Assembly: GCA_903900235.1 (NCBI GenBank)
Contig: CAIUMH010000143.1
Coordinates: forward strand, 1 to 62,175
DNA length: 62,175 bases
Direction of reading: 5' to 3'
DNA from: an uncultured Actinomycetes bacterium
Lineage (GTDB): Bacteria; Actinomycetota; Acidimicrobiia; Acidimicrobiales; RAAP-2
Shown: positions 860 to 11,657 of the stretch, piece by piece
Layout: each line of letters opens with the position of its first letter
Position numbering within the stretch: the stretch's first letter is position 1
Notes under the pieces: model-generated
Database searches by the model: none
The model's input: only the letters and a program-made list of their open reading frames with translations
What the model was told of the DNA's origin: nothing
Made by a program: the position numbers and the translations under genes

Positions 860-1273
860 GTGCTGCGACTCACTTCCACCGTGGCCGATCGCATGATCGC
901 CCATTGCCTCCTGGGTCTTCCTGACGAGGCCTGTGGCCTTCTGGCTGGACATGAGGGAACAGGTGACGTCGACGAGCTCTACCCAACCGACAACCTGGCA
1001 ACGTCGGCCCTCGTCTACACGGTGGATCCGAAGGCCCACCTGAAGGCAGACCGTGACGCTGAGCATCAGGGGAGGGTGATCATCGGCGTGTTCCACTCGC
1101 ACACCCACACCGAGGCCTACCCCTCACCGACCGATGTGGCGCAGGCGCCGGACCCAGAGTGGCATTACGTGATCGTCTCGCTTCGAGACGAGGCACCGGC
1201 GATCCGCAGCTACCGCATCGTCGAGGGACAGATCGTCGAGGAGCCCGTTGAGATCCTCAGCGGTGCCGTCTGA
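860..1273 (+). CDS. mec: JAMM-family metallopeptidase, Mec type (CysO-cysteine peptidase)
   Basis: Zinc peptidase of 137 residues with a full JAMM motif: Glu23, then His79-x-His81-x7-Ser89-x2-Asp92. In Mycobacterium the homologue Mec releases cysteine from the CysO-cysteine adduct made by CysM. The cysO and cysM genes are about 4.8 kb downstream here, not adjacent, so the same job is inferred from family and from linkage. Because the CysO in this window carries two residues beyond Gly-Gly, this enzyme may also trim the carrier precursor, as the JAMM protein QbsD does for QbsE. The start is GTG; no strong ribosome site is visible. A generic M67 peptidase of unknown target is the alternative. 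Confidence 0.85.
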   Translation: MLRLTSTVADRMIAHCLLGLPDEACGLLAGHEGTGDVDELYPTDNLATSALVYTVDPKAHLKADRDAEHQGRVIIGVFHSHTHTEAYPSPTDVAQAPDPEWHYVIVSLRDEAPAIRSYRIVEGQIVEEPVEILSGAV

Positions 1274-1393
1274 CCGAGGATCGACGAGTCGGCTCGACCT
1301 CCCCACGGCACAATGCGATGCGCAGTCCATCCCCTGGGGCGCTGGTTGTGACAGTCTTCGGTGCGCAATCGCCGCAACACACACGGAGGAACC

Positions 1394-1939
1394 ATGACTG
1401 CAACTGCCGTCCAACACATCCAGACCCACTCGACGGTCTATTCGCTCTGCGTCCTGCTGATGCGAGTGATGCTCGGTGGCATGATCGCCTCCCATGGCCT
1501 CAACAAGTTCTTCGGCGGCGGCAAGATTGCCGGCACGGCCGGCTGGTTCGACTCCATGGGGATGCGTCCGGGCAGGTTGAACGCCCTGCTCGCTGCCACG
1601 ACTGAGGTGGGAGTGGGACTCCTGCTGATCGTGGGGCTCCTTACGCCACTGGCATGCGCAGGACTGGTATCGATCATGGTGGTGGCGATCATCACGGTCC
1701 ACCTCAAGAATGGGTTCTTCGTCTTCAATGCCGGACAGGGCATTGAGTACTGCCTGGTCGTGGCGGTCATGGCTATTGCCCTTGGTGGACTCGGTGGCGG
1801 CAAATTCTCCATCGACCACGCGGCCAAGGTCTGGACCATGCGTCCGGCCATCGGGCTGGCGGTGGCCGCCCTGGTGGGTGTCGGTGGAGCGCTCTTGCAG
1901 CTTGCGGTCTTCTACCGGCCGACGAAGGCACAGGCCTGA
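1394..1939 (+). CDS. DoxX family membrane protein
   Basis: Integral membrane protein of 181 residues with about four hydrophobic helices. The N-terminal helix carries the DoxX-like stretch LGGMIASHGLNKFFGGG followed by a small-residue helix, and the end is a short basic tail. DoxX proteins are linked to membrane-associated oxidoreductase activity, and in Mycobacterium a DoxX protein works with a superoxide dismutase and a thiol oxidoreductase; the exact reaction is not settled. The ATG at 1394 is chosen over an upstream GTG at 1361 because GGAGGA lies at 1385-1390. It precedes two FAD-dependent oxidoreductase genes on the same strand, with a 39-bp gap to the first, so a shared redox role is plausible but unproven. 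Confidence 0.85.
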   Translation: MTATAVQHIQTHSTVYSLCVLLMRVMLGGMIASHGLNKFFGGGKIAGTAGWFDSMGMRPGRLNALLAATTEVGVGLLLIVGLLTPLACAGLVSIMVVAIITVHLKNGFFVFNAGQGIEYCLVVAVMAIALGGLGGGKFSIDHAAKVWTMRPAIGLAVAALVGVGGALLQLAVFYRPTKAQA

Positions 1940-1978
1940 GCCTCGCTCGGAGCGGGGCCAGACTCTCGAGGGGGCGTC

Positions 1979-3409
1979 ATGGACGATCTGCTGCACGTCG
2001 ATCTCAAGGATGTCAGGCCAGCCACGGCTGAAACCGATGTCTTGGTGATCGGGTTCGGCGCTGCAGGGACCTGCGCCGCCCACGCTGCCCGAGAGGCTGG
2101 TGCCGAGGTCATCGCCATCGAGCGCTCCGCGGGGGCCGGAGGAGCGGCGGCACTGGCCGAAGGGATCATCTACCTCGGCGGAGGCACCCCGGTGCAGCAG
2201 GCCTGTGGCTTCGATGACTCGGTGGAGAACATGACCGCCTACCTCATGGCCGCATGTGGGCCGGAGCCCGATGAGGCCAAGGTGGCTGCCTACGCCAACG
2301 GGAGCCTTGATCACTTCGACTGGCTGGTGGCCCGAGGGGTGGAGTTCGACGCTCGGCTCGATATCGAGACACAGATGGCACCACGCGACACCCACGGACT
2401 GGTGTGGTCGGGGGGAGAGAACGCCTGGCCGTTCAGCGAGATGGCCACCCCGGCCCCCCGAGGCCACCTTGCCAAGACGAAGAACTCCACCGGGTGGCTC
2501 TTGATGAAGATCCTGGCTGAGGCCTGCGAAGCCATCGGCGTCGAGACCGTCTACGACACGAGGGTGACGGCTCTCGTGGTCGATGGTGATCGGGTGGTTG
2601 GGGTGGTCGCCTCGTCCTATGGCGAGGAGAGGGTCTATCTGGCTCGGCGGGGGGTGGTCCTGACGGCCGGAGGCTTCATCTGGAACGACGACATGCTGCG
2701 CCGCCACGCCCCGACGTTGTTGCGAGGGACGTGGAAGGTCGGCACCGAGGCGGACGACGGCCGAGCGATCGAGATGGCTCAGTCCGTCGGTGCGCGGGTC
2801 AAGAACATGCACGTCGGGGAGGTCTCACTTCCCATCATCCCGCCTCGCGATCTGATCCAGGGGATCATCGTCAACGGCCACGGACAGCGCTTCATCAACG
2901 AAGACACCTACATGGGGAGGGTCGGCCAGGCCGCCCTCTACGACCAAGATGCCACCTGCTTCCTCGTGGTGGACGAAGCGGCCTATCAGCCGAACTGGAT
3001 GGGACTCACCGCAACCTGGGTCTGCGAGACGGTGGGGGAGCTTGAGTCAGAGATGGGTCTTCCCGCCGGCTCACTCGAGGCCACCGTCGATCTCTACAAC
3101 CGGCACGCCGCGACCCACGACGACCCGATGTTCCACAAAGCTCCCGATTGGGTGCGCCCCTTGATTCCGCCCTTGGGGGCTTTCGATCTGCGACCCGGTG
3201 TGGCGCCCTACGCCCCGTTCACCCTTGGTGGTCTCGAAACCTCGGTAGCAGGCGAAGTGATCGGCCTCGGTGGCGAAGCCATCCCCGGTCTCTTTGCCGC
3301 AGGCAGGACCACGGCCGGGATCTGCAGCTTCGGCTATGCATCGGGGCTCTCGATTGGAGACTCGACGATGTTCGGACGCTTCGCCGGCCACTCGGCGGCA
3401 GGCGCCTAG
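1979..3409 (+). CDS. FAD-dependent oxidoreductase (fumarate reductase/KstD-like), copy 1
   Basis: Flavoprotein of 476 residues in the fumarate reductase/3-ketosteroid dehydrogenase flavoprotein superfamily. The dinucleotide motif GFGAAG is at residues 25-30, followed by an acidic strand end (IAIE) and the GGAAALAEGIIYLGGG segment. The C-terminal FAD motif is PGLFAAGRTTAG with FGYASGLSIGDS. It has no signal peptide and no haem-binding CxxCH, so it is a cytosolic single-domain enzyme. The chemistry is probably reduction or dehydrogenation next to a carbonyl; the substrate is unknown. The next gene is a close paralogue of nearly equal length, 37 bp downstream, making a tandem duplication. Start ATG at 1979; GAGGGGG lies upstream. 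Confidence 0.85.
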   Translation: MDDLLHVDLKDVRPATAETDVLVIGFGAAGTCAAHAAREAGAEVIAIERSAGAGGAAALAEGIIYLGGGTPVQQACGFDDSVENMTAYLMAACGPEPDEAKVAAYANGSLDHFDWLVARGVEFDARLDIETQMAPRDTHGLVWSGGENAWPFSEMATPAPRGHLAKTKNSTGWLLMKILAEACEAIGVETVYDTRVTALVVDGDRVVGVVASSYGEERVYLARRGVVLTAGGFIWNDDMLRRHAPTLLRGTWKVGTEADDGRAIEMAQSVGARVKNMHVGEVSLPIIPPRDLIQGIIVNGHGQRFINEDTYMGRVGQAALYDQDATCFLVVDEAAYQPNWMGLTATWVCETVGELESEMGLPAGSLEATVDLYNRHAATHDDPMFHKAPDWVRPLIPPLGAFDLRPGVAPYAPFTLGGLETSVAGEVIGLGGEAIPGLFAAGRTTAGICSFGYASGLSIGDSTMFGRFAGHSAAGA

Positions 3410-3446
3410 TCCTCCAGGGGCCATGACAGGCGCGTAGTCTGCCGCC

Positions 3447-4892
3447 ATGCATTCTGACAACAGCTTCTGGCCCCTCGATCGCTCCGAGGTGGCGGCATTC
3501 GATGATTCCGCAGACGTCATCGTGATCGGCTTCGGTGCCGCCGGGACGTCAGCCATCCTTGGTGCCCGCGAGGCTGACCCGGAAGCCGAGATCCTCGTCC
3601 TTGAGAGCACTGGCGGGCCCGGGGGAGCTGCCGCCCTTGCCGGAGGGATCATCTACCTCGGTGGTGGCACCGCGGTGCAGCGAGCCTGTGGATTCGAGGA
3701 CACCCCGGAGAACATGGAGGCCTTCCTGCTCGCCGCCTGCGGCCCGGAGCCCGACGCCTCCAAGATCGCGTCCTACTGCCAGGGGAGTGTGGAGCACTTC
3801 GACTGGCTGGTGGCGGCCGGCCTCGAGTTCGAGCACTCCTTCAGTCATGAGACGCAGATGGAGACGGTCGGCACCGAGGGGTTGGTGTACTCCGGTGGCG
3901 AAGATGCCTGGCCATTCTCGGACATCGCCACTCCAGCAGCCCGAGGGCACCTGATCCGGACGCCAGGGTCAACCGGGCGACTCCTCATGAAGACGCTGAC
4001 GACCACGGCGCTCGCTGCCGGACCGGTGGTGTCATACGACTCGAGAGTCGAGCGGCTGATCGTAGAAGATGGCCGAGTGGTGGGGGTCGTGGCCCGCCAG
4101 CACGGTGTGCAGCGCCATCTTGAGGCCCGGCGTGGGGTCATTATCTGCGCCGGGGGCTTCATCTGGAATGACGCCATGGTCGGCCGAAATGCACCGGTCC
4201 TCCTCGAGGCCAATTGGAAGGTCGGGACCGAAGGCGACGATGGGCGGGGGATTGAGATGGCCCAGGCGGTCGGGGCGCGCGTCAAGCAGATGCATGCGGG
4301 GGAGGTCGCCTTCCCGATCATCCCGCCTCGCCGGCTGATGGAGGGGATCCTCATCAACGCCAAGGGACAGCGTTTCATCAACGAGGACACCTACAACGGC
4401 CGCATGGGCCAGGCGGCCCTCTACGACCATGATGGTGAGGTCTACCTCGTCATCGACGAGGCCAGCTACGAGCCGAACTGGATGGGCATCCAGGCCTCGT
4501 GGGTCTGCGAGACGCCAGCGGAGCTCGAAGCGGAGATCGGGCTGCCCGCAGGGTCGCTCGAGGCGACCCTGTCGATCTACAATCGCCATGCCGCCGTGGG
4601 GGAGGATCCGGTCTTCCACAAAGCGGCAAGCCTGCTGCACCCGCTCGACGGTCACCTCGGAGCGTTTGACCTTCGAATCGGGAAGATCCCCTACGCCGTC
4701 TTCACCTTGGGCGGTCTCGACAGCGATACCGAGGGTCGAGTCATTGATCTCGAAGGATCCCCGATTCCCGGTCTCTTCGCTGCGGGTCGTTCGACATCGG
4801 GAGTAGCGGCATTTGGCTATGCATCGGGTCTTTCGATCGGCGACTCAACATTCTTCGGTCGCCGTGCAGGACGGACAGCGGCCCAACGCTGA
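3447..4892 (+). CDS. FAD-dependent oxidoreductase (fumarate reductase/KstD-like), copy 2
   Basis: Flavoprotein of 481 residues, clearly paralogous to the gene before it along its whole length. Shared blocks include GFGAAGTSA (GFGAAG at 28-33), GGAAALAGGIIYLGGGTA, the VEHFDWLVAAGLEFE region, IIPPRRLMEGILINAKGQRF, and the C-terminal GLFAAGRSTSG with FGYASGLSIGDS. No signal peptide or membrane span is visible. The two proteins differ most in the linker after YDSRVERL and near the C-terminus, so they could be isoenzymes or two subunits of one complex. The start is ATG at 3447. A strong hairpin follows the stop codon. Confidence 0.85.
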   Translation: MHSDNSFWPLDRSEVAAFDDSADVIVIGFGAAGTSAILGAREADPEAEILVLESTGGPGGAAALAGGIIYLGGGTAVQRACGFEDTPENMEAFLLAACGPEPDASKIASYCQGSVEHFDWLVAAGLEFEHSFSHETQMETVGTEGLVYSGGEDAWPFSDIATPAARGHLIRTPGSTGRLLMKTLTTTALAAGPVVSYDSRVERLIVEDGRVVGVVARQHGVQRHLEARRGVIICAGGFIWNDAMVGRNAPVLLEANWKVGTEGDDGRGIEMAQAVGARVKQMHAGEVAFPIIPPRRLMEGILINAKGQRFINEDTYNGRMGQAALYDHDGEVYLVIDEASYEPNWMGIQASWVCETPAELEAEIGLPAGSLEATLSIYNRHAAVGEDPVFHKAASLLHPLDGHLGAFDLRIGKIPYAVFTLGGLDSDTEGRVIDLEGSPIPGLFAAGRSTSGVAAFGYASGLSIGDSTFFGRRAGRTAAQR

Positions 4893-6116: not shown

Positions 6117-6398
6117 ATGCCAGTTTCCATCAGGCTGCCAACCGTGCTCCGACCCCAAGTTGGCGGGCAGGCCACAGTTCAGATTGAAGGGTCCACCATC
6201 GGTGAAGTTCTCTCGACGCTCGTCGCCGAGCATCCTGGCCTGTCGGGTCAGGTGATCGCTGAGGACGGGGCCCTGAACAAGTTCGTCAACATCTACGTCA
6301 ACGATGACGACGTGCGCTACCTCCAGCAGCTCGACACCCCGGTAGCCGACGGCGACGAGGTATCGATTCTGCCGGCGGTCGCCGGCGGGGCCAACTGA
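6117..6398 (+). CDS. cysO: CysO-like ubiquitin-fold sulfur carrier protein
   Basis: MoaD/ThiS-fold protein of 93 residues that resembles mycobacterial CysO throughout, including PTVLRPQVGGQ near the N-terminus, KFVNIYVNDDDVRYL in the middle and DGDEVSILPAVAGG at the end. CysO is thiocarboxylated on its C-terminal glycine and donates sulfide to CysM for cysteine synthesis. Unusually, the Gly90-Gly91 pair is followed by Ala-Asn, so the carrier would have to be trimmed before it can be activated. It is followed 12 bp later by cysM. The start is ATG with GAGGAGGA 9-16 bp upstream. The E1-like activating enzyme (MoeZ type) is not in the window. Confidence 0.9.
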   Translation: MPVSIRLPTVLRPQVGGQATVQIEGSTIGEVLSTLVAEHPGLSGQVIAEDGALNKFVNIYVNDDDVRYLQQLDTPVADGDEVSILPAVAGGAN

Positions 6399-6410: not shown

Positions 6411-7376
6411 GTGACTCGCTACTCCTCAGTCCTTGACCTCATCGGCGAGACCCCGATGGTCGACGTGTCAGCCCTGAGCCCCAATCCAAATGTGAAGATC
6501 TGGACGAAGCTTGAGGGCCGAAACCCTGCGGGATCAGTCAAAGATCGGGTGGCGCTGAGTCTCGTCGAGCAGGCGGAGGCTGACGGGATCCTTGTGCCGG
6601 GTGCTCCGGACCAGATCCTCATCGAGCCCTCGTCGGGCAATACCGGGATTGCCCTCGCCATGGTCTGCAGGATGAAGGGCTACCACCTCAAGGTGGTGCT
6701 GCCGACAAACGTTTCTATCGAACGCCGCCAGCTGCTCGAGGTCTTCGGCGCCGAGATCATCGAGTCTCCCGGCTCCGAGGGCTCGAATGGTGCAGTGCGC
6801 ATGGCCAGAGGCCTCGCAGCTGAGCACCCCGAATGGGTCTTCCTCTACCAGTACGCCAACCCCGCAAACCCCAAGGCACATTACGAGCACACCGGTCCGG
6901 AGATCTTCGCCGATGTCCCGGAGATCACCCACTTCGTGGCCGGCCTCGGCACGTCGGGGACCTTGCTTGGCGTCGGTCGCTATCTCAAGGAGCAGAACCC
7001 CGACATCCAGGTCTGGGCCATCGAGCCCCCCACCGGGGAGATGGTCGATGGACTGCGCAACCTCGATGACGGCTACATCCCACCGATCTTCGCCGACCTC
7101 GGTGGAGCCGAGATCCTCGACCGCAAGACCGTGGTCCGCCCCAGAGAGTCGATCGAGTGGACGCGCAAGATGACCGAGCTGGGACTGTTCGTGGGAATCT
7201 CCTCCGGGGCAATCATGGCGGGCGCCGTCCGCTGCGCCAGTCAGATCCCCGAGGGCCAAGCGGCCACCATCGTCACCATCGCCTGCGACGACGGCTGGAA
7301 GTATCTCTCGACGGGAGCCTGGACCGATGACATCGATACCGTCGTCGACCGTGCCTCGAAGGTGATCTACTTCTAG
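6411..7376 (+). CDS. cysM: CysO-dependent O-phosphoserine/cysteine synthase CysM
   Basis: PLP-dependent beta-replacement enzyme of 321 residues. The Schiff-base lysine is Lys44 in NPAGSVKDR, the substrate/phosphate loop is SSGNTG at 74-79, and the PLP-phosphate loop is GLGTSGT. In Mycobacterium CysM uses O-phosphoserine and the thiocarboxylated CysO to make a CysO-cysteine adduct, and the gene order cysO-cysM here supports that version over a plain CysK. The sequence continues to a C-terminal [16 protein letters not shown], resembling the closing tail of mycobacterial CysM. The start is GTG at 6411, 12 bp after cysO, so the two are one transcript. Its peptidase partner mec is displaced upstream. 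Confidence 0.9.
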
Positions 7377-9436: not shown

Positions 9437-11657
9437 ATGCCCATCGGCATCAGCGAGGACCACGTCGACCTTCAGCGGACCATCCGTCGGTTTGCGCAGG
9501 AGCAGCTTGCTGGTCGCGCTCGGCTCAACCTCGAGCTTGAGGCCGAGCCGGCGGATGCCACCCTGGCGGATTTGCGCGAGCAGGGTCTGGTGGGGATCCA
9601 CATCTCCGAGGAGCACGGCGGCGAAGGTGCCACGTTCTTCGAGCTTTGCCTGGTGGCCGAGGAGCTCGGGCGCGTGGCGGCTCCCGGGGGATTTGTGACC
9701 ACGGCCCTCGGCGTAGGACTGATTGAGCGGGGCGGCAACGCCGAGCTCGCCAGCTCGGTCATTGCGAGCGTCCTGGCGGGGGACAAGACGCTCACCGTGG
9801 CCTTTCTCGGCCCTGAGGCTTCGGTGCTCTGCGCCCAGAGGACGACCGATGGCGATCTCGAGGTGACGGGCACCCTCAGCGCGGTCCTCAGCGGCTCGAG
9901 CAGCCTGTTGGTGGCCCCGGTGGCCGATGCGCAGACCACCCAGCTGTGCGTCATCGACCTGTCGGCGCCGGGGATCTCGAGCACTGAGCATGCGGGGCTG
10001 GACCTGACCCGACGAGTCTCGACCATCACGTTCGACGCCGTTCGAGTTGGTGCAGGGAACATCCTCACTGGGATCTCGCTGCCCCTGGCGAGGGCCATGG
10101 GCGTGACGCTGGCCTCGTCGGAGCTCGTCGGCGGGGCTCGTGCCTGCCTGGAGATGGCCACGGAGTACGCAAGGACGCGTATCCAGTTTGGTCGGCCCAT
10201 CGGTCAGTTCCAAGCCATCAAGCACAAGCTGGCTGATCTGCTGGTGGCCGTCGAGCAGACGACTGCACTGGCCTGGGATGCAGCTCAGGCCGTCGATCAC
10301 GCCGTCACCCCGGCGACCGAGGCCGAGGCAGCCCTGTGCGCAGAGGCACTCGGGGCGTTGGCCATCGATGGCGGAGTCGACGCAGCCCGGGTTGCGATCC
10401 AGGTGCTCGGCGGCATGGGGTTCACCTGGGAGCACGATGCGCACATCTTCTTGCGCCGGGCACTGACGATGAGGGCGCTGCTCGGTTCGGCCTCGACAGC
10501 CCGTCGCGCGGTGGCTTCGATGGCACTGGCGGGCATCCGGCGACCCCTGGGGATCGATCTGCCCGAGGAGGCGAATGTCCTGCGGACCGAGCTCGAGCCA
10601 ATTGTGGCGGAGATCGCCGCCGCTGAACCTTCGGAGCGAACCGCCATGTTGGGCGAGCGAGGCCTGTGGTTCCCCCACTGGCCAGTGCCGTTCGGGCGGG
10701 GAGCCGGAGCTGTCGAGCAGCTTGTCATCGATGAGCTATTGACGGAACACGGGGTCCGCCGGCCGCCAGCGCACGTCACCGCGTGGGCGCTGCCCACCCT
10801 CATCGCTCACGGCACCGACGAGCAGAAGGAGCACTACGTGACGCCGTCGCTGCGCGGCGAGATCATCTGGTGCCAGCTGTTCTCCGAGCCGGGGGCGGGC
10901 AGCGACCTAGCTTCGCTCGCCACTCGGGCGACCAAAGTCGATGGAGGCTGGCGGATCGACGGCCAGAAGGTGTGGACCTCGGCAGCCCGTTGGGCGAAGT
11001 ACGGGATCTTGCTGGCCCGATCCGATGCTTCGGGTTCGAAGCATGAGGGGATCACCTACTTCATCTTGGACATGGCGTCCGATGGCGTGGACATCCGCCC
11101 CCTGCGCGAGATCACCGGCGAGGCCTTGTTCAACGAGGTCTTCCTCGACGGCGTGTTCATCCCTGATGATCTGGTGGTGGGCACGGTGGGTGACGGCTGG
11201 CGACTGGCTCGCACCACCCTGGCCAATGAGCGGGTGGCACTCGCGGCCACCTCTGCCTTCGGGGGCCTCGCTCGAGGCGGCCCTCGAGGTGGTGGCCTCA
11301 GGCCCTGCAGATGACTCGACGCTCGAGTCGCTCGGTCGCTTGCTGGTTGATGCCCAGTCGCTCTCGCAGATGCGGCAGCGCTCGGTGTTGCGCTCGGTCT
11401 TCGGCCTTGAGCCGGGGTCGGAGTCCAGCCTGGCCAAGTTGCTCGGTGCCGAACACGACCAAGACGTTGCCTACTTCGGTCTCGAGATCCTCGGTCCGAT
11501 GGGCGTGACGGGAGCCGACGGGCCGTCGGCAACCTTTAGTCGCGACGTCCTCCATACGCTCTGCCTGACCATTGCTGGAGGAACCTCCGAGGTGCAGCGC
11601 AACGTGATCGGCGAGCGCATGCTCGGCCTGCCACGCGATCCCGAGCCCGCTAGTTGA
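9437..11657 (+). CDS. Double-domain acyl-CoA dehydrogenase, FadE34-like, frameshifted
   Basis: Two acyl-CoA dehydrogenase modules in one gene, about 739 residues if one frameshift is corrected. The N-terminal module (about 1-370) runs from DHVDLQRTIRRFAQEQ through RIQFGRPIGQFQAIKHKLADL to QVLGGMGFTWEHDAH. The C-terminal module has the FAD/substrate segments QLFSEPGAGSDLASL and GWRIDGQKVWTSAA and ends with IAGGTSEVQRNVIGERMLGLPR. The first frame stops early at 11314, but the C-terminal helices continue in the +1 frame to 11657; deleting one G from the GGGGG at 11261-11265 joins them as AFGASLEAALEVV. Fused double dehydrogenases such as FadE34 act on steroid side-chain CoA esters. Sequencing error and true pseudogene cannot be told apart here. 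Confidence 0.8.

What the first reader, a model, noticed from the sequence alone, without database searches (positions are those of the whole stretch)
6117..6398. CysO sulfur carrier with Ala-Asn after its Gly-Gly
The protein matches mycobacterial CysO, which ends exactly at Gly-Gly, but this one ends GGAN. A carrier of this family can only be adenylated and thiocarboxylated at a terminal glycine, so the extra two residues should block activation until removed. A JAMM peptidase (Mec) is encoded 4.8 kb away, and in the quinolobactin pathway a JAMM protein (QbsD) removes a two-residue tail from QbsE. Mec may therefore do two jobs here, trimming the precursor and releasing cysteine, adding an activation step to cysteine synthesis.
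Basis: partly seen in the sequence, partly recalled or inferred. Interest (0 to 1): 0.72.

Follow-up and report, generated by a model that had tools for sequence, protein, structure and literature searches.

The report
Capped CysO sulfur carrier awaiting trimming
A bacterial sulfur-carrier protein carries two extra amino acids beyond the glycine that must hold the sulfur, so it probably has to be trimmed by a neighbouring metalloprotease before it can help make cysteine; such caps turn out to be common in actinobacteria and were already described in Streptomyces.

Summary
In detail: window 6117-6398 encodes a 93-residue CysO that ends ILPAVAGG-AN. It is not an error, because five other genomes of the same genus end GG-AG, GG-A, GG-SV, GG-AH and GG-AA. 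A full JAMM peptidase (Mec) lies at 860-1273, an O-phosphoserine-type CysM starts at 6411, and the genome holds one ThiF-type activating enzyme, a rhodanese-E1 fusion. The tail is not an oddity. Of 144 thinned cysM-linked CysO genes (a sample biased towards the window's relatives), 85 are capped. All keep the internal Gly-Gly, 53 of the 85 caps are exactly two residues, the first cap residue is Ala or Ser in 68 of 85, and the second is nearly free. Caps also occur in Streptomyces-like and Mycobacterium-like genomes. The trimming idea is well supported but already published in essence: Dong et al. 2018 (PMC6006322) describe capped carriers PtmS2 (GG-MV) and PtmS3 (GG-C) in Streptomyces, with a clustered JAMM protease whose deletion abolishes the thiocarboxylate product. 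That Mec does both jobs remains inference, and two JAMM-less genomes with capped carriers are unexplained. Verdict: a new member of a known kind; capping is widespread in the sampled CysO genes.

The parts
6117..6398 (+). cysO: ThiS/MoaD-fold sulfur carrier, 93 aa, ends GG-AN
   Evidence: ORF; PF02597 E 4e-18; best solved match M. tuberculosis CysO 3dwg_C E 6e-25
6384..6389 (+). Gly90-Gly91, the site where the thiocarboxylate must form
   Evidence: aligned with the terminal GG of 3dwg_C; GG present in all 248 cysM-linked loci
6390..6395 (+). Ala-Asn cap after Gly-Gly
6411..7376 (+). cysM: O-phosphoserine sulfhydrylase-like cysteine synthase
   Evidence: PALP PF00291; best matches are M. tuberculosis CysM 3dwg_A, 3dwi, 3dki (E about 1e-94 or better); the Arg of LRNxDxG, M. 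tuberculosis Arg220, is kept
860..1273 (+). mec: JAMM metallopeptidase, the proposed trimming and cysteine-releasing enzyme
   Evidence: Prok-JAB PF14464 E 6e-23; Glu23 and HSHTHTEAYPSPTD at residues 79-92; directly upstream of cysO in most relatives
1361..4892 (+). DoxX-family gene and two FAD_binding_2 genes lying between mec and cysO
   Evidence: mec is also separated from cysO in two other genomes of the genus (G003 about 7 kb, G001 about 3.7 kb)

Best explanation
The gene encodes a capped CysO precursor. The cell makes CysO with Ala-Asn after Gly91; a JAMM peptidase, most likely Mec at 860-1273, cuts the Gly91-Ala92 bond; the exposed Gly91 carboxylate is adenylated and thiocarboxylated by the single rhodanese-E1 protein (G000 contig 138); CysM joins the sulfur to O-phosphoserine to give CysO-Cys; Mec cuts the Gly-Cys bond and CysO is reused without its cap. 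Trimming is needed once per CysO molecule and cysteine release every turn. Shown here: the cap, the conserved GG, the gene set, the JAMM signature and the constraint on the first cap residue. Inferred: that this Mec does the trimming and that the same active site does both cuts.
For: GG is kept behind the cap in every cysM-linked locus (248 of 248), as expected if it must become terminal. The first cap residue is Ala 51, Ser 17 of 85 (entropy 1.96 bits) while the second is nearly free (3.63 bits); Ala uses all four codons and Ser both codon families, so the residue rather than the DNA is kept. Both are close in size to the Cys of Mec's known substrate CysO-Cys (that Mec cuts CysO-Cys: PMC3227635). 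mec stands in the same operon in most relatives, with full JAMM signatures on 203 loci. Streptomyces: capped carriers PtmS2 (GG-MV, residues 1-90 plus cap) and PtmS3 (GG-C), JAMM gene ptmS1 clustered with ptmS2, and the ptmS1 deletion loses thiocarboxylate products (PMC6006322); Streptomyces-like mec-cysO-cysM loci fetched here end GG-MV, MA, MR, MH. The genome has one ThiF-family gene, fused to rhodanese. Three genomes of one family without a Mec hit (G328, G337, G366) that keep cysO-cysM end exactly at GG.
Against: No biochemistry on this pair. Two genomes with capped carriers have no Prok-JAB hit (G583: GG-R and GG-QA; G546: GG-CGAAR), so another peptidase may trim in some lineages. The Mec-less cysO-cysM test rests on one independent lineage. 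Constraint on the first cap residue could come partly from shared ancestry or other peptidases.
Confidence: 0.78

Rival explanations
1. The cap is a tolerated leftover. Because Mec must be present anyway to cut Gly-Cys, residues after GG cost nothing, and stop codons drift outward, often until cysO overlaps the start of cysM for translational coupling. There is trimming, but no added control step. (This shares the trimming mechanism with the best explanation and differs on whether the cap has a purpose.)
For: At least 28 changes of cap presence on a tree of 182 loci, 58 on average for shuffled labels; caps from 1 to 42 residues; 31 of 85 capped genes overlap cysM against 1 of 59 uncapped (p 1e-7), though a longer ORF does this mechanically.
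Against: Length peaks at two residues (53 of 85) and the first residue is Ala or Ser in 80%. In the window's own clade all 35 species keep 1-3 residues with no loss, although support for that clade is weak (48). Simple drift would give longer and more varied tails.
Confidence: 0.4
2. The cap is removed by another peptidase (a carboxypeptidase or a general protease) and Mec only releases cysteine.
For: Capped carriers in genomes without a detected JAMM peptidase (G583, G546); MoaX of M. tuberculosis is cut after GG by a protease unidentified in that study (PMC4326299).
Against: The JAMM deletion in Streptomyces abolishes use of capped carriers (PMC6006322); a JAMM enzyme cuts after GG in Deinococcus MoaD-MoaE (PMC8832034).
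Confidence: 0.15
3. The carrier is not used as a thiocarboxylate donor; the tail reflects loss of function.
For: Only the tail itself.
Against: GG, the fold, CysM with the phosphoserine-binding Arg, Mec and the activating enzyme are all kept, and the same genus keeps the gene in six genomes.
Confidence: 0.02

Closest known systems
Streptomyces capped sulfur carriers PtmS2/PtmS3 with JAMM protease PtmS1 and activating enzyme PtmS4 (PMC6006322)
   Same: GG followed by a one- or two-residue cap, JAMM gene clustered with the capped carrier, one E1-type activating enzyme
   Different: Studied for thioplatensimycin rather than cysteine; cap MV rather than AN; need for PtmS1 shown by knockout, not by trimming in vitro. 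That PtmS2 is Streptomyces CysO is inferred from length, cap and gene context, not by sequence comparison
Mycobacterium tuberculosis CysO-CysM-Mec-MoeZ
   Same: Homologous carrier, cysteine synthase and JAMM peptidase
   Different: M. tuberculosis CysO ends at GG; here GG-AN, and mec is separated from cysO by 4.8 kb. The activating enzyme here has rhodanese before the E1 domain
QbsE/QbsD of quinolobactin synthesis
   Same: Tail after GG removed by a JAMM peptidase before activation (QbsD cited for this in PMC6006322; the length of the QbsE tail is from memory)
   Different: Siderophore pathway; sequences not compared here
Deinococcus DRJAMM with MoaD-MoaE fusion, and M. tuberculosis MoaX
   Same: Cleavage after GG frees the carrier end (PMC8832034, PMC4326299)
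   Different: A whole domain rather than a short cap is removed; molybdenum cofactor pathway

Membership tests
CysO sulfur carrier | ThiS/MoaD beta-grasp family, closest to mycobacterial CysO | tested here: met
   PF02597; 3dwg_C best of all solved chains, aligned over the whole length
CysO sulfur carrier | Genetic linkage to CysM with phosphoserine-binding Arg and to Mec | tested here: met
   cysM starts 12 bp after the cysO stop and keeps the LRN Arg; mec 4.8 kb upstream, adjacent in most relatives
CysO sulfur carrier | C-terminal Gly-Gly | tested here: inconclusive
   GG present but not terminal in the primary product; the same is true of 85 of 144 cysM-linked CysO genes, so a terminal GG in the gene product is not a defining feature
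CysO sulfur carrier | Thiocarboxylation by a rhodanese-E1 enzyme and sulfur transfer via CysM | not testable with these tools
   one rhodanese-ThiF gene in the genome; activity untested
Mec (JAMM peptidase) | Glu and H-x-H-x7-S-x2-D metal and catalytic signature | tested here: met
   Glu23, HSHTHTEAYPSPTD 79-92
Capped sulfur carrier (PtmS2/QbsE type) | Short extension after a conserved GG plus a JAMM peptidase in the gene neighbourhood | tested here: met
Capped sulfur carrier (PtmS2/QbsE type) | JAMM-dependent removal of the cap before activation | not testable with these tools
   only precedent in Streptomyces (PMC6006322)

The most novel reading that the evidence does not exclude
Capping is the usual state of CysO in this group and serves as a checkpoint: newly made CysO cannot enter the cycle until Mec is active, and the first cap residue (Ala, Ser, sometimes Cys) is kept because it mimics the cysteine of CysO-Cys in the Mec site, so precursor and cysteine adduct compete for one enzyme and couple carrier supply to cysteine demand.
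Probability: 0.15. Interest if true: 0.55.

Novelty: new member of a known kind. Interest (0 to 1): 0.33.

Why it matters
The CysO cysteine cycle is usually drawn from M. tuberculosis, whose CysO needs no trimming. The survey here suggests that in many actinobacteria CysO is made as a precursor, so Mec may be needed at two points. This matters for annotation, for expressing active CysO, and for understanding what Mec does. The constraint on the residue after GG gives a direct, cheap test of Mec specificity.

Tried and rejected
1) Sequencing error: rejected by five congeners with caps. 2) Strict rule 'capped only if a JAMM peptidase is present': among 39 genomes with a carrier but no Mec hit (no Mec-query hit for the class and relatives, no Prok-JAB hit for the phylum set), most carriers end at GG, but five are capped (G259 Q, G329 C, G697 AR, G583 R and QA, G546 CGAAR). 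In G697 the genes downstream lie off the contig end; G259 and G329 have genus mates with Mec; G583 and G546 remain exceptions. G130 also sits at a contig edge, so it is not a clean Mec-less case. The rule is a tendency only. 3) A Mec loop residue (D or E in HSHTHTxAYPSPTD) seemed to follow cap state, but the link disappears on the tree (median sign-test p 0.5). 4) The Amycolatopsis CysO paper (10.1038/nature13256) is not held, so a recollection that it too reports cap removal by a JAMM enzyme is not used. 5) The E. coli, phage and plasmid collections were not searched, as they could not bear on an acidimicrobial chromosomal gene. 6) Structure prediction was not run: monomer models would not show whether Mec accepts the cap.

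Full report
What is there. Window 6117-6398 encodes a 93-residue ThiS/MoaD-fold protein that ends ILPAVAGG-Ala-Asn. Its closest solved relative is M. tuberculosis CysO (3dwg_C, E 6e-25), which stops at the aligned Gly-Gly. Twelve bases after its stop codon starts a cysteine synthase whose best solved matches are M. tuberculosis CysM (3dwg_A, 3dwi, 3dki) and which keeps the Arg that corresponds to M. tuberculosis CysM Arg220 (its phosphoserine role is from general knowledge). Mec, with Glu23 and HSHTHTEAYPSPTD, lies at 860-1273. The genome has one ThiF-family gene, a rhodanese followed by an E1 domain. So the gene set of the CysO cysteine route is present.

The cap is real and general. All five other genomes of the genus have one or two residues after GG (AG, A, SV, AH, AA). 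I gathered 245 cysM-linked cysO genes from whole genomes and named contigs, 192 unique and 144 after thinning at 85% identity. GG is present in all; 85 of the 144 are capped and 59 end at GG. The sample is biased towards the window's relatives, so 59% is not an estimate for the phylum. Caps are most often exactly two residues (53 of 85). The first cap residue is Ala (51) or Ser (17), the second is almost free (entropy 1.96 against 3.63 bits). Ala is written with all four codons and Ser with both codon families, so the residue, not the DNA, is kept. A tree of 182 loci needs at least 28 changes of cap state, against 58 for shuffled labels: heritable, yet repeatedly gained or lost. In the window's own clade all 35 species are capped by 1-3 residues; that clade has weak support.

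Caps reach far beyond this family. Mycobacterium-like genomes of one genus include GG ends and caps AVGVR, SVDGV and SVGV; Streptomyces-like mec-cysO-cysM loci end GG-MV, MA, MR or MH; one further genome has a 41-residue repetitive cap (L327). The second carrier of the window's own genome, next to a threonine-synthase-like gene, ends at GG, and in other genomes this second type is sometimes GG-Cys.

How it probably works. An E1-type enzyme adenylates a free C-terminal carboxylate, so Gly91 has to be exposed (established chemistry of the family). The cut needed, GG|Ala, is the same kind of bond that Mec cuts when it frees cysteine from CysO-Cys (PMC3227635). In Streptomyces platensis, capped carriers PtmS2 (GG-MV) and PtmS3 (GG-C) and a JAMM protease clustered with ptmS2 were described, and deletion of the protease gene abolishes the thiocarboxylate product (PMC6006322). 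PtmS2 has the length, cap and gene context of the Streptomyces CysO seen here. JAMM cleavage after GG is also shown for Deinococcus MoaD-MoaE (PMC8832034). I therefore take Mec as the trimming enzyme with confidence near 0.8. That the same Mec does both cuts is inference.

What does not fit. Among 39 genomes with a carrier and no Mec hit, five have capped carriers. Three of these may be assembly gaps (G697 at a contig end; G259 and G329 with Mec in genus mates), but G583 (GG-R, GG-QA) and G546 (GG-CGAAR) are unexplained; another peptidase may act there. Three genomes of one family that keep cysO-cysM without a Mec hit (G328, G337, G366) end at GG as expected, but this is one lineage. A possible link between a Mec loop residue and capping vanished after correction for relatedness.

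Is the cap a checkpoint or a leftover? The two-residue peak and the Ala/Ser preference argue for some selection; the strong association of capping with overlap into cysM (31 of 85 against 1 of 59) and the frequent changes argue that stop-codon drift is tolerated where Mec is present, though the overlap is partly mechanical. I cannot decide between them.

Judgement. Its novelty is limited: the idea was published for Streptomyces in 2018. What is added here is that capping is widespread in CysO genes linked to cysM, with a conserved small residue after GG.

Noticed in passing
window 9437-11657: An acyl-CoA dehydrogenase gene (two fused copies) is split by an apparent frameshift near 11260-11310, beside a run of five G; the C-terminal domain continues in another frame. 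Could be an assembly error or a broken gene.
   Followed up: partly
window 1361-4892: A DoxX gene and two adjacent, similar FAD_binding_2 flavoproteins sit between mec and cysO and interrupt an otherwise compact mec-cysO-cysM order; mec is also apart from cysO in G003 and G001 of the same genus.
   Followed up: partly
   Followed up: no
L317-L321, L051, L096: The second carrier type (beside a threonine-synthase-like gene in the window's own genome) often ends GG-Cys, the same sequence as the CysO-cysteine adduct that Mec normally cuts.
   Followed up: partly
L331 (G583), 2716-4205: A rhodanese-E1 gene directly followed by a carrier ending GG-Arg in a genome with no detected JAMM peptidase; a carboxypeptidase could be the trimming enzyme.
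   Followed up: partly
L340 1106-2392: The genome's only ThiF-family protein has its rhodanese domain before the E1 domain; M. tuberculosis MoeZ has it after (PMC3227635).
   Followed up: no
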